From an uncultured Flavobacteriaceae bacterium (GTDB lineage Bacteria > Bacteroidota > Bacteroidia > Flavobacteriales > Flavobacteriaceae): DNA of 64,000 nucleotides. A program made the position numbers and the translations under genes. This document shows, one piece after another, positions 54,741 through 63,353 of the stretch. The notes under the pieces were generated by a model, which searched no databases, had not been told where the DNA came from, and saw nothing but the letters and a program-made list of their open reading frames with translations. The DNA lies in the NCBI GenBank assembly GCA_947504035.1, contig CANNGA010000006.1, positions 62,001-126,000 on the forward strand. The letters are read 5' to 3'. Position 1 is the stretch's first letter. Every line of letters starts with the position of its first letter.

Positions 54741-55401
54741 AGTCTATATGTTTTTAACTTTCGACACTACAAAGATAGAACAGATGTAGTACTAATAACA
54801 CATTTATATTAGCCTATTTATATGTAATATTATCCGTTAAATATATGTTAACTCAATATTAAGTCAATATAGCATATGTTAGAGATAATATGCCATAATA
54901 TTAGGTGTAAAAACTTACAAAATAAGTGATTTTTAGAATGTTTTTGGATAGTATTTATAGATTAAAACGTTTTATTTTTTTTTAAAGTTATCCAACTGTA
55001 AATTTAAGATTACCAGCCTTGCTTCGTAAAGGGAGTTGTAATGTGGGGTTGGTATTGGAAACGCTAGTAGTGTTTAATCCTAGGATATGTATGGAATACC
55101 GTCATGAGGGTTTTCAAATGCTATAAACACTACTATTTTCTTAATTTCTGCTTAGTATCACTACGTTAAATTAAAAAACATCGCATAGCGCTAGTGTTTG
55201 CAGCAGTTGAAAGACGTAATAGATTTTTTACTGCATACTTTGGGTTAATTTGTAAAGGAAATAGACACCTCCTTCTATTATTTTAATAGAAGGAGGTGTT
55301 TTAAAATGGTTTTAGATAGATTTTATTGTACAGTATTACGCTATAGAAGTGTTATTGTATGCTGTTCTTGTGTTTTTACGACAACTGCGTTTAAAAATGA
55401 T
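54741..55401. other. 661-bp intergenic region with structured segment
   Basis: No convincing ORF. The part at 55000-55150 is less AT-rich than its surroundings and contains a 12-bp inverted repeat (TAGTAGTGTTTA at 55065-55076; TAAACACTACTA at 55124-55135) around 47 bases that include the palindrome ATCCTAGGAT. A strong hairpin follows at 55265-55299. It may hold an uncharacterised RNA, a remnant of a mobile element or both. Confidence 0.4.
55265..55299 (-). terminator. Terminator of the giant AAA+ ATPase gene
   Basis: A perfect 16-bp stem ACACCTCCTTCTATTA / TAATAGAAGGAGGTGT with a 3-base loop, 100 bp after the ATPase stop. The T tract on either strand is weak, so read-through is possible. 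Confidence 0.65.
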
Positions 55402-58400
55402 TTAGGGCTCGTTTTTTTCCAAGCCTTGTTTTAATACGTCTTGTATGCCTTCTAAATGTTCGCTAAACTGCATCATTTGGGCAAGCACCTGAGCCATTTC
55501 GTTTTGATTGCCAAAACCTTTCAGTTTGTTGTTCTTTACAAAAGTAGTTTTAATAGTTTCCCAGCGTTCTGCTTCGGTTGCATCTATAGTGTTTGTAAGC
55601 GTTTTAAATTTTAATAGGTTGGCTTCAGCTGCACTGGTAAGTGTTTGCGATTCGTTTTCATAATGCGATAATAAAAGTGTCTGTAACTCTTTAGCATTCA
55701 TAATCGGTACAACCTTAGCCACTAGTTTGCTCATGTCGCGGTAAGAGCCTTGTAATTTAAAAGAAGGTTCAGTACGGTAGCTGTCATCCATTGCCGCCGA
55801 TTTAATGTAAGTTTCGTTAACTTTTAATACGGTGTTTCGAATTGTAACCACTTTATCTAAAACAGCTAAGTAATCTTGAATTTCTTGTTTGGTATGGTTG
55901 CCCTTAAGATTAACATCGTCATGGTTTCCAGATTCTACTGCTGCTATAAGCTGATAGATGTCTTCAAAATACTTGCTGCTTAATTGGTGTAATATTGGGT
56001 TAGAGGTGAGCGCATTTTCAATTAAGCTTAGTTTAAACAGATCGGCAGTATCTCCAATAATATCTCCCAAGTTATAAATGTCGGCCCGGTTGGCTAACAT
56101 GTCTGGTATTTGAAATTTGTCGCCACTTTCGGTATAAGGGTTTCCTGCCATGATAACACAGAATTTTTTACTGCGTAAATCGTAGGTTTTAGGCACACCA
56201 TTATATACACCTTCTATTTTTCTGGTACCATCGGCTAGAGAAATGAATTTCTGTAAAAATTCTGGGTTGCAATGCTGTATATCATCTAAATAGAGCATGA
56301 CGTTGTTGCCCATTTCAAATGCTAAATTTAGTTTTTTGAGCTCTTCTCGTGCGGCAGAGTTATTTGCGGTTAATGGGTCTACAGAGGTCACTTCATGACC
56401 AATAGCAGGGCCGTTTATTTTCATAAAAATAAGACCAAGACGGTTCGCCATGTATTCCATTAAGGTTGTTTTACCATAACCAGGCGGTGATATGAGGAGT
56501 AACATGCCCATACGATCGGTACGCTTGTTAGCGCCGACACTTCCTAATTGTTTGGATAAATTATCGCCAAACAAAGGCAAATACACTTGGTCAATAAGTT
56601 TATTGCGGACAAACGATGATAAGACACGGGGCTTAAATTCTTCGAGTTTTAATTCTGATTTTAACCTATGTGTTACGGCATGTTTGGCGTCGCGATAAGC
56701 ATTAAATGCAGGCACATCAAGTGTTGTAAATTGCTCTAAAGTACTTATAAAATCGTGATAGTTAAAGTAGAATTCGCCGTTAGTAATGCTATTATGGCTG
56801 CCTTTTAGGCCTCGAATTTGTGTGCTGGCATCTACCTGAATGATTTTAGAGCTGGCGTCGTTTTTAAATACTAAAAGCGCAACAACTTCGTAAATATAAG
56901 CGGTGGCTTCTGGGGCTTGTGCTTTTAAAAAAGCACCAATCCATTGCACAGCTAATACTACGGCATCTGTACTGTCGGTTTGCGCTTCTGTCGCAGCTTT
57001 TAAAGTGCTTTTAAAAGTGTTAAGTGCTTTTTTCTGCTCTAGGGTTTTAATGAAAGCGTCGTGTAAATCTTGCGCGGTTTTGCTAATACAAAAACGATCG
57101 CTACTTTGAAGTTCTTCAAAAAGATAAGATGCTGTTTTATGCGCCAGATTTTGCGTTTCTTTTGTGTCCTGTGGCGATAGTATATCGAGATAGACCGAAT
57201 GTGATAAAGCGGTACTTAAAGCTGTTATAATACTTTTATATTCTGTACTGTTTGGAAATACCGCTAAAACGTTACCAGAGGCTTTTATTTTTTGGTTCCA
57301 AAGGTGTTTATTGTCTGCATCTAGTGTATTCCAAAAGCATTGACCGAAAGCTCTAATGGTAGGGGTATAACGTAATAAGCCCAGGTCTTCATGCTTAAGA
57401 CATAATGTTTTTAGAATTACGGCTGCATCTTCATCATGAACGCCTTTTACATAACCTTCAGCATAGTTTTTACTGCTTTCACTTTTTACAAGTTCTAAAA
57501 GGGCAGCATCATCACTAAAATTTATCTTTAGCAATGGGGTATTAAATAATTTATAGGCCAAATAGGCCGAACGGTATACGGTATCGTTTTCAGAGATTAA
57601 TTCTTGATCCCAATACGTTTTGGAGGCCAATAAAACGTCGTCTTTAATAGTTTGGTAGAAGTCGGTACCTGTTAAATGGTATTTTAAGGTGTCGTCTTTA
57701 TAGACGATCGTAAGGTCTAAAGCCTGTTTGTTAACCCCAAATTTATGCTTACCAAGCTTTATAATGTTTTCACCATCTTCGTATAAATCTTGGGTGTCTT
57801 TTAGCTTTCTAATGGCATCTTCTTTGGCGACTTTTAATCCGGTTTCAATAGTTTCTGCCTTGCCTGGATCTTCTAAATCTTTTAAGTCGCTAATGATATC
57901 ACGAAGCTTGTTTATCATTAAATCGGATGCGAAATAACCGTTAATTTCAACCGTTGTTTTAAAGCTTTGTGCTTTTTTTGAGACGCCTTTTAAAATGCGA
58001 TTCGCGGTAGCTTCTAAGCGTATTGCTTTTTTATTTCTAGCTTCAACGAGACTATTTTTTCTAGCTTCAAATGCATTGTAAACTTCTTCGCGTTTTTCTA
58101 TGATTAAGGAGATAAAATCTTCAAAATCTGCAAATCTCCCTTCTAGATCTTCTAGCTGTACAGAGACTTTGTTAAGGAGTTCGTCTGTTTTTTCAGGGGT
58201 ATTCGCAATATCTAGATAATTGATGATACTCTGGTCTACCAGTTTAAGTTGTGCTGCAAACTCGGCAGAAGCTTCTTTTTCGCCTAAGGTTTTTAAAGTG
58301 TTTTTTAAACCTGCCTTTAGTTGGTTTATAGTCGCAAAGATTAAAGAGATGTTGTCTATAATTTGCGTAGAATGTGAGGCGTCTTCTATTTCTAAATTTG

Positions 58401-60303
58401 AAACGATATCGATAAGCATTTCTAAATCGCTGGCAATTTGATGCACCTCTTCTTCTAAGGTTTTGGCAGCGATAACTTTTGTAATCGTTTTTAATGCGGC
58501 TTCTTTTTCTGCAACGCGTTCGTGGTAAGGTACAAGAGCCTTGTCGTTTAATAGAAATTCTACACAGCGCTTAGAAATGGTATCGTTTTGGGCAATGATA
58601 GTTTCCTCTAAGGAGGTTATGAATGCTGTATCTACATACCGAATTTCGTTTAAGCCTATCACTTCACCTCTAAGGGTTCTTAATTGGGATAGTACGGCTA
58701 CAAAATCTTCAATCGATTTGAAACTGCTGCTTTTAATTTTTCCAAAAATAGCATCAGCCTTGGTTTGTGTTTCCTTGGTTACGGCTGCTGCTGTTTTGCG
58801 CAGCTGCACCACTTTGTCAAACTCATCTACAGCGGCATTAGCGGCTTCGTTTAATGCTTTTAGAGGGGCATTAATAAGAAAGGTGTCGGGTTCTGCAATC
58901 CAATAATAGCTATTTAAGATATCGTTTGTGGCTTTGGCAATATCGTTGTATAAACCGTCGTAACTGTCTTCTTTATTAAGTAAGGTAATTAAAGCTTGGC
59001 ATTCAGCCATTGCTTTTACAATGTCTTTATTTCCAATTTTATAAAGTAAGGTGTCTGTATGCTCAGATGGCATTACATCACCTTTTATAAAAGGGGTTTG
59101 CCATATTTGAATGACATGGTGTTTGGTTTGTGTGTCTTCGGTTTTAAAATAGCAGAGTTCTCCGTGGCTAAGAATGGTAAATCCATTACAAATAATGGGG
59201 GTGTTTACCTGTTGTTCAATCACGTTGTACGAAAGGAGGATGTACAAGCCATTTTCACTTTCATAAAACACATAGAGGTAATCTTCTCCATTAGGCGAAC
59301 TTACTTTCTTCTGAAATTTAACCTTAGAAATGCCGTTTTCAAACAATTTGAAATCACCAGATTGCAAATAGTAACCATTTGCAAAAATAATTCCTTGGTC
59401 GTCTGGTAAAAGAACGCAGGCGTCTGCAATACTGTCTATTTTTTTAACCTCTTGTATTTTGTGGTTGTAAACAAAATAGCGAGGCGCTTCTTGGAAAGGT
59501 TTAATTTCCAAGGCAATTAAATTGCCTAAGTCTGCATACCTGTATTGTCCATCGTCTAGCGTTTGATCTGGATGAAGTACAGGTTCGTCATAGATGCCTT
59601 TACCATCATCGGTATTATCTTCTATTTTTATGGTTAAATCGCCACCTACTGTTTCAACAAAAACCTTGTTTAGTATGGAAACGTGAGGGTGTAACCCATA
59701 CACGTGATGATCTCGTGAAGGCTCGACCCAGTTAAACTCGTGTTGGTTTGGGAATTTAAATTCATGCTCACTACGGTTATCTACATATTGTAGTGCCCCG
59801 TCATTAATGAGCCATTTAAAGGTTTTAATATCAGTACTGCTTTCGCTTAATTGAAATACCATGTGCAAGTAATTGCCCACGATAGCGAATTTGGAAAAAA
59901 TGGTGTTTCGGTAGTATTTATAAAGGTTTGTGAAATCGTTTATAAATGTACTGTCTTCTATTAATGCAAGCGGTTGTATGGTAAAATGGTTGTCTCCAAA
60001 GGTGTAAATACTAAAAACATCTGCAAGCGTAACGTCGGTACGTAGCCCAAAATGCACATTATAACCAAATAGGCAAAGGTCTCCAATGGTTACAATGTCT
60101 CTGGCAATGCAATTGTTTTCGGTATTGATACGGTTGTTGGCAATAAGTTTTGTTTCTACACTGCCAAAGACCTCTTTACGGGCATCGTTTAATTGCGACA
60201 GTCGCGATAGTAGGTCGCTTTTTTGTTTTTGTAAACGTCCTTGAATAATTTCGTAAGTACCACCGTCTAGTTGTGTATGTTGTTCTGTTGTGTTGTCTTC
60301 CAT
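55402..60303 (-). CDS. Giant AAA+ ATPase (DNA repair ATPase-like) linked to flotillin
   Basis: 1633 residues. A short coiled coil (about 20-45) precedes a ~370-residue beta-rich region (about 60-430; repeated GYNVHFGL-, GNYLHMVF- and NGLYILLSYN-type strands, propeller-like). A long helical region follows (about 470-900), then a mixed region, and an AAA+ domain (about 1250-1450). Walker A is PPGYGKTT (K1278), Walker B is MLYLDD (D1340-D1341), and sensor 1 is IMAGNPYTE. Helices follow to the C-terminus. Proteins of this layout are often annotated as DNA repair ATPase, but direct DNA binding is not evident. The gene lies 157 bp downstream of the flotillin gene on the same strand, with a terminator in between. 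Confidence 0.8.
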   Translation of the reverse strand: MEDNTTEQHTQLDGGTYEIIQGRLQKQKSDLLSRLSQLNDARKEVFGSVETKLIANNRINTENNCIARDIVTIGDLCLFGYNVHFGLRTDVTLADVFSIYTFGDNHFTIQPLALIEDSTFINDFTNLYKYYRNTIFSKFAIVGNYLHMVFQLSESSTDIKTFKWLINDGALQYVDNRSEHEFKFPNQHEFNWVEPSRDHHVYGLHPHVSILNKVFVETVGGDLTIKIEDNTDDGKGIYDEPVLHPDQTLDDGQYRYADLGNLIALEIKPFQEAPRYFVYNHKIQEVKKIDSIADACVLLPDDQGIIFANGYYLQSGDFKLFENGISKVKFQKKVSSPNGEDYLYVFYESENGLYILLSYNVIEQQVNTPIICNGFTILSHGELCYFKTEDTQTKHHVIQIWQTPFIKGDVMPSEHTDTLLYKIGNKDIVKAMAECQALITLLNKEDSYDGLYNDIAKATNDILNSYYWIAEPDTFLINAPLKALNEAANAAVDEFDKVVQLRKTAAAVTKETQTKADAIFGKIKSSSFKSIEDFVAVLSQLRTLRGEVIGLNEIRYVDTAFITSLEETIIAQNDTISKRCVEFLLNDKALVPYHERVAEKEAALKTITKVIAAKTLEEEVHQIASDLEMLIDIVSNLEIEDASHSTQIIDNISLIFATINQLKAGLKNTLKTLGEKEASAEFAAQLKLVDQSIINYLDIANTPEKTDELLNKVSVQLEDLEGRFADFEDFISLIIEKREEVYNAFEARKNSLVEARNKKAIRLEATANRILKGVSKKAQSFKTTVEINGYFASDLMINKLRDIISDLKDLEDPGKAETIETGLKVAKEDAIRKLKDTQDLYEDGENIIKLGKHKFGVNKQALDLTIVYKDDTLKYHLTGTDFYQTIKDDVLLASKTYWDQELISENDTVYRSAYLAYKLFNTPLLKINFSDDAALLELVKSESSKNYAEGYVKGVHDEDAAVILKTLCLKHEDLGLLRYTPTIRAFGQCFWNTLDADNKHLWNQKIKASGNVLAVFPNSTEYKSIITALSTALSHSVYLDILSPQDTKETQNLAHKTASYLFEELQSSDRFCISKTAQDLHDAFIKTLEQKKALNTFKSTLKAATEAQTDSTDAVVLAVQWIGAFLKAQAPEATAYIYEVVALLVFKNDASSKIIQVDASTQIRGLKGSHNSITNGEFYFNYHDFISTLEQFTTLDVPAFNAYRDAKHAVTHRLKSELKLEEFKPRVLSSFVRNKLIDQVYLPLFGDNLSKQLGSVGANKRTDRMGMLLLISPPGYGKTTLMEYMANRLGLIFMKINGPAIGHEVTSVDPLTANNSAAREELKKLNLAFEMGNNVMLYLDDIQHCNPEFLQKFISLADGTRKIEGVYNGVPKTYDLRSKKFCVIMAGNPYTESGDKFQIPDMLANRADIYNLGDIIGDTADLFKLSLIENALTSNPILHQLSSKYFEDIYQLIAAVESGNHDDVNLKGNHTKQEIQDYLAVLDKVVTIRNTVLKVNETYIKSAAMDDSYRTEPSFKLQGSYRDMSKLVAKVVPIMNAKELQTLLLSHYENESQTLTSAAEANLLKFKTLTNTIDATEAERWETIKTTFVKNNKLKGFGNQNEMAQVLAQMMQFSEHLEGIQDVLKQGLEKNEP

Positions 60304-60312
60304 AATTTAGAG

Positions 60313-60332
60313 ACTTCCATAGTTCTGGAAGT
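60313..60332 (-). other. Hairpin just upstream of the giant ATPase start
   Basis: ACTTCCA (60313-60319) and TGGAAGT (60326-60332) form a 7-bp stem with a 6-base loop, 9 bp upstream of the ATG. It is in the leader and could affect ribosome access. Confidence 0.35.
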
Positions 60333-60422
60333 GATATTCATAATATAATGGCGTATGTAAACCTTAAAATCGCTTGGTGATTTTGAGTGTATTTGTATTA
60401 ACAGTCAAAATACCGAATAGAG

Positions 60423-60454
60423 ATCACACCTCCACAAGTATATGGAGGTGTGAT
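60423..60454 (-). terminator. Terminator after the flotillin gene
   Basis: ATCACACCTCCA (60423-60434) pairs with TGGAGGTGTGAT (60443-60454), 12 bp, loop 8. T-rich DNA follows on the plus side, and on the minus strand it is followed by CTCTATT, a weak T tract. It shares the ACACCTCC core with the ATPase terminator. Confidence 0.65.
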
Positions 60455-60460
60455 TTTATT

Positions 60461-62563
60461 TTATCCCAATTTCTTATTGGATACCCCTAAGCCTTTGGCA
60501 AGATTGGCCAAGTTGTTAAACAAGGTCACTTCGCTAGCATCGGAGGTTTTAGATTTTAAATCTACCAATAAATTAGCTATAGATACATTTTTAATGTCTT
60601 CTGAAGAAATGCCATATTTGGTAGCAAAGTCTTTAATCTTATCTAAAAGATTGCCTTTAACATCATCGCTGCCTAGAATCGCATCTTTTACTTGTGTGAT
60701 GTTATCAGAATGGTTTACCAAACGGTCTATACCTTTAGATTTGGTAATCTGACCTATAATTTGATCGAAGAACATTGTTTCTCCACCTACAATATCAATG
60801 TTGGCGGCTTTAAGTGCAGCGCCAATCACATCGGCTTGTGCGTAGGCCACTTCTTTTTGAATATTGATTTCGGCTAAATCGACTTGTAATTCTTTGTCTA
60901 ATCGTAACTTAAATTCTTCATGTTCTTTACCAACACCGTCTAATTTCTTCATCGCATTGGCTTTTTCTTCGATACCAGCAGCTTCTGCTAAAGCAATTTC
61001 TTTGTCGCCTATGGCTTTGGCTAAGGCCTGTTCTTTAATCACTTCGGCTTCTGCAATACCTTGTTCTTTTAAGGCTTCTGCTTTTGCTAAAATACCAGCA
61101 GCTTCTGCTTTTGCCTTTTCTTGAACAATATTAGCTTCTACTAGACCTTGACGCTCGTTAGCATCTGCTTTAGCATGCATAACTTGTGCCTCAGACATTC
61201 CAATTACAGCTTCTTCTTTGGCTGTTGCTTCTGCTAAGGTTTTTCGTGCTTCTGCTTCTTTTTGACTGGCTTGCTTTTTGGCTTCTGCTTCAATATTAAT
61301 TTCTTCTGCTTTTTGTTTAGAAGCTTCTTTTTCTGCTTCAGCAGCTTTTATAGTTTTAATTAACGATTCCTGTGCGTTGGCTTCGGCAATAGTAATTTTT
61401 ACCTGTTTCTCTCTGTCAGCTGTTTTAAAGGCTTCTATATCCTTCATGTTCTCTTGCTCTTCTACGACTCCTTTTTCTAGCATTACCCTGTCGCGAATCA
61501 CATCTTGGATGTTTTTCTTTTCAACTTCAACAACCTTTTCTTTTTCAATTTGCGCTAAAGTAACGATGCGTTCTCTTTCTGTAGCTTCTAGCATACGGTC
61601 TTTCTCTACGCGTTCTGTCTCTACCACATCGGTACGTTGTTTGTTTTTCGCAGCGACAATAATTTGGCGTTCCATATTTTCTTCGGCGACTTTTACTTTT
61701 TCTTGTGTAGAAATTCGAGCCGTTTCAGATTTTAAACGTTCTTCTTCAGCAACCTTAAGAATTTCGGCCTCTTCTCGGGCTTTGATATTTGAAATTTCTC
61801 GGTGTTGCTGTTCTTCTTTTTCAGCCAATTGTTTGTCTAATTCTAAAATGGCTTCGCGTGCTTCTACATCTTGCTTGCGAATTACTTTTTCCTCATCACG
61901 TTTAATAAGGTTGGCTTTCATATTTTGTTCTGCCGTAAGTTCTGTGATCTTTTTAATTCCTTCTGCATCTAGAATGTTATCAGGTTTTAAGAAGGTTACA
62001 GGGGTTTGCTCTAGGTAATCAATCGCACAATCCTCTAAGGTATAGCCGTTAAGGTCTGTTCCTATAATGTCTACGATCTCATCGCGAAATTCTCTACGGG
62101 CTTCGTATAATTCTACGAATTGGAATTTTTTACCTACGGTTTTTAAGGCTTCAGAAAATTTAGCTTCGAAGAGTTCTTCTAGTGTTGAAATGTCTGAAGC
62201 ACGTTCGCAACCCACCGTTTGCGCTACTTTTTTAATAAATTCTACTTCGTTATTTACTCTAACAAAGAAGGCTACCTTTATATCAGCACGCATATTATCT
62301 TTACATAACAAGCCATTATCGCCAAGGCGCTCTATTTGAATTTTCTTTACCGAAATGTCCATAATTTCTACTCTGTGAAATACCGGTACGACGTATAAGC
62401 CTTTGTCTGTAGCTACTTTAGTTCCTTTGAAACCTGTTCTTACCAGGGCTTCTCCTTGTGGTACCTTTTTGTAGAATAAGGCAATAATTGCAAAATAAAT
62501 GATGATTAGAAAAAGAATAAGACCAATGCCTATTCCAACAAGTTGCAGAATGTGTACGTTCAT
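60461..62563 (-). CDS. Flotillin-family SPFH protein
   Basis: 700 residues. An N-terminal membrane helix (about 8-30) precedes the SPFH/band-7 domain (about 35-215, with GEALVRTGFKGTKVATDKG, NGLLCKDNMRADIKVAFFV and NGYTLEDCAIDYL). A very long Ala/Glu/Lys-rich coiled coil (about 215-560) and a C-terminal domain (about 570-700) follow. Flotillins oligomerise into ring or cage scaffolds that organise membrane microdomains. The YqiK-like length and adjacency to an NfeD/YqiJ-like gene 31 bp upstream support this assignment. The coding strand of the coiled coil is highly repetitive in codon use. Confidence 0.9.
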   Translation of the reverse strand: MNVHILQLVGIGIGLILFLIIIYFAIIALFYKKVPQGEALVRTGFKGTKVATDKGLYVVPVFHRVEIMDISVKKIQIERLGDNGLLCKDNMRADIKVAFFVRVNNEVEFIKKVAQTVGCERASDISTLEELFEAKFSEALKTVGKKFQFVELYEARREFRDEIVDIIGTDLNGYTLEDCAIDYLEQTPVTFLKPDNILDAEGIKKITELTAEQNMKANLIKRDEEKVIRKQDVEAREAILELDKQLAEKEEQQHREISNIKAREEAEILKVAEEERLKSETARISTQEKVKVAEENMERQIIVAAKNKQRTDVVETERVEKDRMLEATERERIVTLAQIEKEKVVEVEKKNIQDVIRDRVMLEKGVVEEQENMKDIEAFKTADREKQVKITIAEANAQESLIKTIKAAEAEKEASKQKAEEINIEAEAKKQASQKEAEARKTLAEATAKEEAVIGMSEAQVMHAKADANERQGLVEANIVQEKAKAEAAGILAKAEALKEQGIAEAEVIKEQALAKAIGDKEIALAEAAGIEEKANAMKKLDGVGKEHEEFKLRLDKELQVDLAEINIQKEVAYAQADVIGAALKAANIDIVGGETMFFDQIIGQITKSKGIDRLVNHSDNITQVKDAILGSDDVKGNLLDKIKDFATKYGISSEDIKNVSIANLLVDLKSKTSDASEVTLFNNLANLAKGLGVSNKKLG

Positions 62564-62594
62564 AGTTGTTCTTTGGTTTTAAATGTAATGTGTG

Positions 62595-63353
62595 TTATAA
62601 TTCGAGTTTGTTATTTGTATTAGAGGTGTCGTCTTCAAAGGGGAGTACCCAAAAGAAGTTTTTATCGTCCGATTGTTTTACAATAATGATATCTTGGCGG
62701 TAGTTAATCGTACTACCATCAAAAGACTTCGCGTATATGGTCATGGGGTTGCCATCTGCTAATACTTCAGCAGCTCCCATTTTATCCTCAGAAATTTTAG
62801 ATTGCATAATGCCTTTTCTACCTGTTAGGTTTGTGGGAAGGTCACCATCTGGATTTAGGTTTTTAAAAAAACTCTTAAAAGGCGTTGTGAAAATTTTGGT
62901 GAGCAATAAAGAAGGCAGTAGCCCTGCCAAAAGTAGCGTGTAACCAAAATTGGTGTTGTAAGAGCTTGTATAACTGGTAGAGATAACGGTGCATAACCAC
63001 CAGATAAAAATCCAACTGGTAAACGTAAACATAAAAGGTAGGCCTACAAAGTTGAAGAAGAGCAGTGCCGTTTGCCACCACTTTAATTTTCTTTTGCGGT
63101 GTCTTATAAGGTCTTCTTTGTTAATTTCTGCATTCGCGAGATCGGGAAGCTGTGTGCTGCCATCTACAGTGGCGTCCATATCAACATCCACATCCACGTC
63201 TGCATCCACATCCACATCGATGTCTACGTCTATATCTAAATCAAAATCGATTCCAGATAGCATCGTAAAGCACCAGTACAGGATAAGTAAAATTACCAGT
63301 AAGGTTAAAATGATGTTTACAGAAGAAAATATAATGTCGAGAATAGTGAGCAA
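62595..63353 (-). CDS. NfeD/YqiJ-like membrane protein with (Asp-X)n segment
   Basis: 252 residues. A membrane helix (about 8-32) is followed by a segment in which Asp occupies every second position from D36 to D60. A soluble stretch and two further membrane helices (about 95-145) come next. The C-terminal ~90 residues include NLTGRKGIMQSKISEDKMGAAEVLADGN and IIIVKQSDDKNFFWVLPF, resembling the OB-fold of NfeD/YqiJ proteins. Those proteins are the usual operon partners of flotillins and are thought to help assemble the microdomain. It is first in the three-gene group. The DUF1449 style of Asp repeat fits what I recall of the family. Confidence 0.8.
   Translation of the reverse strand: MLTILDIIFSSVNIILTLLVILLILYWCFTMLSGIDFDLDIDVDIDVDVDADVDVDVDMDATVDGSTQLPDLANAEINKEDLIRHRKRKLKWWQTALLFFNFVGLPFMFTFTSWIFIWWLCTVISTSYTSSYNTNFGYTLLLAGLLPSLLLTKIFTTPFKSFFKNLNPDGDLPTNLTGRKGIMQSKISEDKMGAAEVLADGNPMTIYAKSFDGSTINYRQDIIIVKQSDDKNFFWVLPFEDDTSNTNNKLEL

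What the first reader, a model, noticed from the sequence alone, without database searches (positions are those of the whole stretch)
55402..63353. Flotillin + NfeD/YqiJ-like + 1633-residue AAA+ ATPase form a candidate membrane-microdomain machine
NfeD-flotillin pairs are well known, but here a very large ATPase with propeller-like, coiled-coil and AAA+ parts follows on the same strand. AAA+ domains of this MoxR-like type often remodel complexes. A plausible idea is that flotillin makes the scaffold, the NfeD-like protein fixes it in the membrane and the ATPase remodels it or loads a client. The terminator between flotillin and ATPase would set a lower ATPase dose. I recall that large 'DNA repair ATPases' co-occur with flotillins elsewhere, but I cannot check this.
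Basis: partly seen in the sequence, partly recalled or inferred. Interest (0 to 1): 0.78.

Follow-up and report, generated by a model that had tools for sequence, protein, structure and literature searches.

The report
Flotillin operon with dedicated giant ATPase
A marine bacterium carries a known but little-studied three-gene membrane unit, a raft-type scaffold protein, a small membrane partner and a very large ATP-driven machine, whose scaffold seems specialised for that machine.

Summary
Three same-strand genes encode a YqiJ/NfeD-like membrane protein, a 700-aa flotillin and a 1633-aa ATPase (DUF3686 propeller-like part, DUF7902 helices, intact AAA+ motor). The arrangement is in print: Ravi et al. 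2024 (PMC11237479) describe the operon and its 'abbreviated' PspA-less form. So it is a new member of a known kind. My searches of one open-licence library found no experiment on the ATPase.

Added here: (1) ATPase-linked flotillins are a separate class with a different C-terminal part; in 100 genomes of the family this flotillin occurs only with the ATPase (10 of 10). (2) A stem-loop after the flotillin stop codon recurs in place, mostly without a U-run. (3) The window's genome and ten relatives have the unit but no PspA.

Best reading: a flotillin/YqiJ scaffold served by a dedicated AAA+ remodeller. Contact is untested.

The parts
62595..63353 (-). YqiJ/NfeD-like membrane protein, 252 aa, two hydrophobic segments found by a simple hydropathy scan (1-39, 107-125)
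   Evidence: profile match to E. coli YqiJ and relatives, hhalign probability 96.4 over residues 91-237
60461..62563 (-). Flotillin of the ATPase-linked class, 700 aa, one N-terminal hydrophobic segment
   Evidence: hhalign probability 100 to the YqiK family over residues 9-450 only
62033..62470 (-). SPFH/Band_7 domain of the flotillin (residues 32-177)
   Evidence: E 5.7e-16
60464..60853 (-). Flotillin C-terminal tail (residues 571-700) with the IDIVGGE segment; similarity to it was found only in ATPase-linked flotillins
60420..60457 (-). Stem-loop just after the flotillin stop codon, in the flotillin-ATPase gap
   Evidence: recurs in position in relatives
55402..60303 (-). AAA+ ATPase, 1633 aa, no predicted transmembrane segment, no HExxH motif
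58903..60216 (-). DUF3686 (PF12458), residues 30-467: N-terminal helix, beta-rich propeller-like part, first helices
58294..58542 (-). DUF7902 (PF25472), residues 588-670, within a long helical region (about 419-842)
55624..56613 (-). AAA+ module (about residues 1231-1560): Walker A SPPGYGKT 1272-1279, Walker B LDD 1339-1341, sensor-1 N1388, Arg finger R1406, sensor-2-like R1522
   Evidence: motif roles assigned from recalled AAA+ knowledge
55265..55299 (-). Terminator-like stem-loop after the ATPase gene, sharing the arms ACACCTCC/GGAGGTGT with the upstream one
   Evidence: the arm pair occurs only at these two places in the 4.23-Mb genome

Best explanation
The three genes are one functional unit. 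SHOWN by sequence: the genes, their conserved order, intact AAA+ motifs, an ATPase without predicted transmembrane segment, a flotillin class that goes with the ATPase and has a C-terminal part of its own, and a stem-loop that recurs after the flotillin gene. INFERRED: the YqiJ-like protein and flotillin form a membrane-anchored oligomeric scaffold that gathers damaged or mis-assembled membrane-associated proteins; the ATPase docks on the special flotillin tail, as a ring, and spends ATP to pull clients out of the scaffold or to take the scaffold apart. The stem-loop lets the cell make much flotillin and little ATPase, as a large scaffold served by few rings would need. PspA and its CesT/Tir partner are frequent but optional co-workers; in this genome the unit works without PspA.
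For: Gene order: 80 of 81 loci with at least 5 kb upstream have a flotillin upstream of the ATPase on the same strand, 78 of 81 also the YqiJ-like gene; the other one has a divergent copy. Gaps: 28 of 80 within 300 bases, 52 within 1 kb, longest 4586, median 552. Profile: in 100 genomes of the family the ATPase is in 11 and this flotillin in 10, all 10 within the 11 (p 6e-13, not corrected for kinship); the eleventh genome is 81% complete with the ATPase near a contig end. In 296 genomes of the phylum all 8 ATPase genomes have flotillins aligning to residue 697-700, while 11 flotillin-only genomes stop at or before residue 528, one of them at a contig end. In the plasmid collection the 12 ATPase records are the top 12 of 317 flotillin records, and the tail alone hits 6 records, all with the ATPase. 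Tree: 23 linked flotillins apart from 5 ATPase-free ones, 100/100. ATPase and flotillin distances correlate, rho 0.92, 36 loci. Deinococcus sequences group with Gammaproteobacteria in both trees, as expected for joint transfer. Hairpin: z below -3 after the flotillin stop in 21 of 38 non-redundant loci, against 1 of 35 after the YqiJ-like gene, 3 of 21 after PspA, 7 of 43 after the ATPase. S. aureus flotillin (with NfeD) holds unfolded proteins without ATP (PMC11222466, abstract and section list).
Against: No experiment shows contact between flotillin and ATPase. The tail search misses 6 of the 12 ATPase records, and two of its six hits are weak (E 0.06, 38% covered); in Gammaproteobacteria and Deinococcus little beyond the IVGG-like segment aligns, so the tail may not be a universal docking site. 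Distance correlation is expected between genes that travel together, and PspA correlates nearly as well (0.89 in 21 loci). Only 5 ATPase-free flotillins were in the tree. The stem-loop is not seen at z below -3 in 17 of 38 loci. In 52 of 80 loci the gap exceeds 300 bases and in 28 it exceeds 1 kb, often with other ORFs in it, so the genes need not share a transcript there. Fold-search scores are low (TM 0.18/0.41 for the best N-part hit; TM by query 0.10-0.17 for the C-part).
Confidence: 0.5

Rival explanations
1. The ATPase works mainly on PspA (ESCRT-III-like) as a Vps4 analogue, and flotillin only brings it to the membrane.
For: PspA lies in the same cluster in 52 of 81 loci. In the family draw 8 of 9 genomes with PspA over the cut-off have the ATPase (p 8e-9), in two of them (G003, G033) on another contig than both flotillin and ATPase, as 'encoded elsewhere' would predict. 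In the phylum draw 7 of 8 ATPase genomes have PspA (p 0.007). Ravi et al. propose that PspA acts from elsewhere when the operon is short.
Against: The window's genome (99.2% complete) has the ATPase and no PspA match; nor have G019 and G079 of the same draw. Of the genomes behind 35 of my 78 genome-contig loci, 11 lack PspA; ten of these form one clade with the window and one unscored row, inside PspA-bearing relatives. PspA is common in the phylum without the ATPase: 116 of 296 over the cut-off, 109 of them without it. The model shows a hairpin before sensor 1, unlike classical-clade AAA such as Vps4 (clade rule recalled).
Confidence: 0.2
2. The ATPase is a DNA-repair factor, as its database name says, and its place beside flotillin reflects shared stress regulation.
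For: Product names 'DNA repair ATPase' or 'DNA repair protein' in 5 of the 12 plasmid-collection records and the Pfam description.
Against: No DNA-binding domain was found by Pfam, NCBIfam or PADLOC. A flotillin lies nearby in all 81 loci examined. Weak RuvB matches cover only residues 1257-1304 around the Walker A.
Confidence: 0.07
3. The unit is an anti-phage or conflict system carried by mobile elements.
For: Patchy distribution: 11 of 100 in the family, 8 of 296 in the phylum draw, 2 of 247 in a third draw whose centre was one of the two. Copies on six records under 600 kb of the plasmid collection, from four phyla. A DNA methyltransferase gene is among the neighbours on pQBR103 and a TerD gene on a Streptomyces plasmid.
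Against: PADLOC gives only matches of at most 74 residues at the Walker A. No match in phage records, and no confirmed match in viral contigs. Neighbouring genes were not scanned for defence families.
Confidence: 0.1
4. The ATPase assembles or loads specific membrane enzymes, as MoxR proteins do, with flotillin as a parking site.
For: AAA_5 is the best AAA family (31.4 against 29.7 bits for PF00004); CbbQ and NorQ, both MoxR type, are among the fold hits.
Against: Dynein, ClpA and RuvB have better E-values. A vWA partner was not looked for.
Confidence: 0.13

Closest known systems
PspA-linked and 'abbreviated' YqiJ-flotillin-AAA+ operons (Ravi et al. 2024, PMC11237479; section 19 and passages seen)
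   Different: No PspA match anywhere in this genome, so the suggested partner elsewhere is missing. The flotillin tail and the stem-loop are not mentioned in the parts I saw.
E. coli YqiJ-YqiK / B. subtilis YuaF-YuaG pairs
   Same: Homologous pair in the same order in E. coli; the B. subtilis pair is taken from passages of PMC2636767.
   Different: No such ATPase among the annotated genes of the 12-kb K-12 stretch around yqiJK; YqiK is 553 aa and the profile alignment leaves out the last 250 residues of the window's flotillin.
HflKC-FtsH and prohibitin with m-AAA protease (recalled)
   Same: An SPFH assembly paired with an AAA+ machine.
   Different: The window's ATPase has no predicted transmembrane segment and no HExxH protease motif, and its AAA+ module looks of another type.
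S. aureus FloA-NfeD (PMC11222466, abstract and section list)
   Same: Flotillin plus NfeD-family partner.
   Different: That stabilisation is described as ATP-independent; here an ATPase is built into the unit.
B. subtilis YdjFGHI (PMC8581546, abstract)
   Same: SPFH protein tied to envelope stress.
   Different: There the SPFH protein links PspA to the membrane; this genome has no PspA match.

Membership tests
YqiJ-flotillin-propeller/AAA+ operon of Ravi et al. [quoted passage not shown]
   (coiled coil by similarity to YqiK and composition, no coiled-coil program run)
YqiJ-flotillin-propeller/AAA+ operon of Ravi et al. 2024, abbreviated form | AAA+ ATPase with N-terminal beta-propeller and coiled coil | tested here: met
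   DUF3686 and AAA_5 over cut-off; propeller-type fold hits with low TM-scores; long helices
YqiJ-flotillin-propeller/AAA+ operon of Ravi et al. 2024, abbreviated form | 3TM YqiJ/YuaF-type protein | tested here: inconclusive
   Homology to YqiJ, probability 96.4, but a simple hydropathy scan finds only two segments
YqiJ-flotillin-propeller/AAA+ operon of Ravi et al. 2024, full form | CesT/Tir-PspA pair | tested here: not met
   no PspA match in the genome; neither found in the window; CesT/Tir not searched genome-wide
DUF3686 (PF12458) | Score over the curated cut-off across the whole profile | tested here: met
   603.6 bits, profile 1-448 of 448
MoxR AAA+ family | Best match to MoxR-type AAA+ rather than other clades | tested here: inconclusive
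   AAA_5 narrowly best; mixed fold hits
MoxR AAA+ family | vWA-domain partner gene | not tested
   neighbouring ORFs were not scanned for vWA
HflKC-FtsH type SPFH/protease complex | Membrane-anchored zinc protease fused to the AAA+ motor | tested here: not met
   no HExxH, no predicted transmembrane segment in the window protein
Known anti-phage systems in PADLOC | Match over most of a PADLOC model | tested here: not met
   ATPase: only IetA 118-147 of 330 and mad8 25-70 of 314 around the Walker A; flotillin none; YqiJ-like one weak hit, E 0.03
DNA repair ATPase | Role in DNA repair | not testable with these tools
   name only; no DNA-binding domain found

The most novel reading that the evidence does not exclude
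Bacteria have a third kind of SPFH-AAA+ machine beside HflKC-FtsH and prohibitin-m-AAA: a flotillin class with its own C-terminal docking tail that binds a soluble, protease-free AAA+ unfoldase, works without PspA, is moved between phyla as a block on plasmids and chromosomes, and has its scaffold-to-motor ratio fixed by a stem-loop between the two genes.
Probability: 0.35. Interest if true: 0.72.

Novelty: new member of a known kind. Interest (0 to 1): 0.42.

Why it matters
What bacterial flotillins do is an old open question. A flotillin that comes with its own ATPase offers a direct handle: the motor should act on whatever the scaffold gathers. Genomes that keep the unit and lack PspA make it possible to study the flotillin-ATPase pair apart from the phage-shock response, and the tail gives a small, testable docking prediction. 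It also suggests that the name 'DNA repair ATPase' misleads.

Tried and rejected
Defence system: rejected as lead reading. DNA repair: name only. 'PspA elsewhere': tested genome-wide and not met here, though two relatives do have PspA on another contig (G003, G033). Canonical terminator: only 6 of 33 long stems after flotillin in the non-redundant set are followed by at least 5 T in 8 bases; the stem after the ATPase in the window is terminator-like by the scan. Matched hairpin pair as a general feature: in none of eleven close relatives do hairpins at both sites share arms; only two of them showed hairpins at both sites. Bacteroidota-type promoter motif TANNTTTG (recalled): 78 matches in the window against 99 expected, none between the genes or in the 300 bases before the YqiJ-like gene, no use. 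PDB sequence search: the listed C-part hits (60 of 78 shown) cover the Walker A region except one coiled-coil protein; the N-part has two weak coiled-coil hits. VIA-align was not available. Papers: DUF3686, PF12458 or DUF7902 in no paper held; 'DNA repair ATPase' with 'flotillin' in none; YqiJ, YqiK and ATPase together in none; further listings gave no experiment on the ATPase by title or abstract start. Only the open-licence library was searched, and most listed papers were not opened.

Rows dropped: one search counts the 81 loci with the ATPase on the + strand and at least 5,000 bases before it, out of 108 ATPase-bearing sources; the rest have short flanks or contig ends, and the window itself is left out. 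The 81 are redundant (many Aquimarina); the 80%-identity subset has 43 ATPases. One search kept the best 80 of 117 relatives (78 loci). One search was given 41 loci, one of which was not searched; 35 were genomes, 5 plasmid records. One search selected 61 rows for the structure alignments and I used 51.
Full report
WHAT IS THERE. The window ends with three genes on the minus strand: a 252-aa YqiJ/NfeD-like protein (62595-63353), a 700-aa flotillin (60461-62563) and a 1633-aa ATPase (55402-60303). Gaps are 31 and 157 bases. The ATPase matches DUF3686 over the whole profile, DUF7902, and AAA_5 over its cut-off. The flotillin's SPFH domain shows only when its N-terminal part is scanned alone. The membrane protein has no convincing Pfam or NCBIfam match, yet aligns with E. 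coli YqiJ and three relatives at probability 96.4. The genome has three further Band_7 proteins elsewhere.

THE MOTOR. Among 26 ATPases below 70% pairwise identity, the Walker A SPPGYGKT, the Walker B aspartates D1340-D1341, N1388, R1406 and R1522 are invariant (motif roles are recalled knowledge). The Walker B ends in DD where DE is usual. The AlphaFold2 model of residues 600-1633 (pLDDT 82.2, pTM 0.59) places a beta-hairpin just before the sensor-1 strand. Fold hits are AAA+ proteins of several types: dynein, ClpA, RuvB, CbbQ, NorQ, all with low TM-scores by query length. The model of residues 1-845 (pLDDT 82.8, pTM 0.58) is beta-rich from 52 to 402, then helical; its best fold hits are mostly WD40 and prolyl-oligopeptidase propellers, again with low TM-scores, so I call it propeller-like. 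The window's ATPase has no predicted transmembrane segment and no HExxH motif.

CONSERVED NEIGHBOURHOOD. tblastn finds the ATPase over at least 97% of its length in 12 records of the plasmid collection, from Bacteroidota, Actinomycetota, Deinococcota and Gammaproteobacteria. Six of the records are under 600 kb; the others are 1.7 to 11.9 Mb and may be chromosomes or chromids. There is none in phage records and no confirmed one in viral contigs. Of 81 loci with at least 5 kb upstream, 45 read CesT/Tir-PspA-YqiJ-flotillin-ATPase, 26 YqiJ-flotillin-ATPase, 6 have in addition to the long form a short flotillin, 1 has PspA without a recognised CesT/Tir, 2 lack a recognised YqiJ, and 1 has the pair divergent. 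The distance from flotillin to ATPase is at most 300 bases in 28 of 80 and over 1 kb in 28 of 80, longest 4586; many of the long gaps hold other small ORFs. On pQBR103 the unit follows YjfI, PspA, a rhomboid protease, DUF2491, DUF350, DUF1190 and a glutathionylspermidine-synthase-like gene.

A FLOTILLIN CLASS OF ITS OWN. In one draw of 100 genomes of the family the ATPase is in 11 and the window's flotillin in 10, all among those 11. In 296 genomes of the phylum the ATPase is in 8; all 8 have flotillins aligning to residue 697-700, while 11 further genomes have weaker flotillins whose alignments stop at or before residue 528. Among 317 plasmid-collection records with a flotillin match, the 12 ATPase records rank 1-12, and the last 130 residues hit 6 records, all with the ATPase, two of them weakly; the other 6 ATPase records are not hit. 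A tree separates 23 linked from 5 ATPase-free flotillins with full support. The profile alignment with the YqiK family ends at residue 450. Limits: the ATPase-free set in the tree is small, and in Gammaproteobacteria and Deinococcus the tail is short and diverged.

PspA IS OPTIONAL. Ravi et al. 2024 suggested that short operons might work with PspA encoded elsewhere. The window's genome, 99.2% complete, has no PspA match; G019 and G079 of the same draw have the ATPase and no PspA either. Eleven of 35 further ATPase genomes also lack it (their completeness is not told); ten of these, with the window and one unscored row, form one clade inside PspA-bearing relatives, which reads as one loss. Still, in the family draw 8 of 9 PspA genomes have the ATPase, in two of them on another contig, and in the phylum draw 7 of 8 ATPase genomes have PspA. 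So the partnership is real where PspA exists. Phylum-wide, PspA is much commoner than the ATPase (116 of 296 over the cut-off against 8).

A STEM-LOOP AFTER FLOTILLIN. The 60 bases after the flotillin stop fold better than shuffles at z below -3 in 62 of 99 loci, against 2 of 79 after the YqiJ-like gene, 14 of 83 after the ATPase and 0 of 99 in a coding control (redundant loci). In the non-redundant set it is 21 of 38, against 1 of 35, 7 of 43 and, after PspA, 3 of 21. Arm sequences differ between lineages and most stems lack a U-run, so I read it as a stability or partial-termination element. In the window the terminator-like hairpin after the ATPase shares its arms with this one, and the pair of arms occurs nowhere else in the genome; the close relatives examined do not show such sharing.

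WHAT IS KNOWN. The gene arrangement, including the beta-propeller/coiled-coil AAA+ ATPase, is described in PMC11237479 (section 19 read in full; passages). PMC9239133 (passages) links PspA with flotillin and NfeD genes. PMC2636767 (passages) describes YqiJ-YqiK-type operons; the word ATPase does not occur in its main text. PMC13086221 (passages) reports few phenotypes for P. aeruginosa SPFH deletions. PMC11222466 and PMC8581546 were seen as abstract and section list. My searches turned up no experiment on the ATPase.

MECHANISM AND VERDICT. I commit to a flotillin/YqiJ scaffold with a dedicated, protease-free AAA+ remodeller, PspA optional. Linkage, the flotillin class and the stem-loop are shown by sequence; docking, remodelling and dose control are inference. 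The locus is a new member of a published kind, with three added observations that make the idea testable.

Noticed in passing
window 55265-55299 and 60420-60457: Two hairpins that bracket the ATPase gene share the arms ACACCTCC/GGAGGTGT; the pattern occurs only at these two places in the whole 4.23-Mb genome. No such sharing was seen in eleven close relatives.
   Followed up: partly
L033:5488-6132, and likewise L040, L048, L068, L084, L106, L087: A second, short flotillin (183-215 aa) sits between the YqiJ-like gene and the full flotillin in six Aquimarina loci and one Bacteroidetes MAG. The one sequence I read (L033) has a hydrophobic start and the SPFH part only.
   Followed up: partly
L033-L106 (Aquimarina and relatives), between flotillin and ATPase: Variable small ORFs fill the gap in many loci, above all a family of about 76-105 aa with a hydrophobic C-terminal part (45 ORFs in 32 loci), often repeated. 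Family unknown; my Pfam scan of gap proteins failed.
   Followed up: no
L003, L030, L031, L057, L066, L098, L101 and, partly longer, L040, L048, L051, L075, L084: A 144-155-aa family (334 aa in three Aquimarina loci) with a hydrophobic N-terminus occupies the flotillin-ATPase gap in 12 loci, seven of them in the window's clade; the window lacks it.
   Followed up: no
ATPase residues 1340-1341: The Walker B motif ends in Asp-Asp and not Asp-Glu in all 26 non-redundant ATPases, which could mean slow ATP hydrolysis.
   Followed up: no
G016 (family draw): The only genome of the family draw with PspA over the cut-off and without the ATPase; it is 91% complete in about 220 contigs.
   Followed up: no
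Flotillin 60461-62563: A whole-length Pfam scan misses the SPFH domain, which is found when the N-terminal part is scanned alone; automatic annotation may miss such flotillins, as in the Hymenobacter and Deinococcus records named 'hypothetical protein'.
   Followed up: partly
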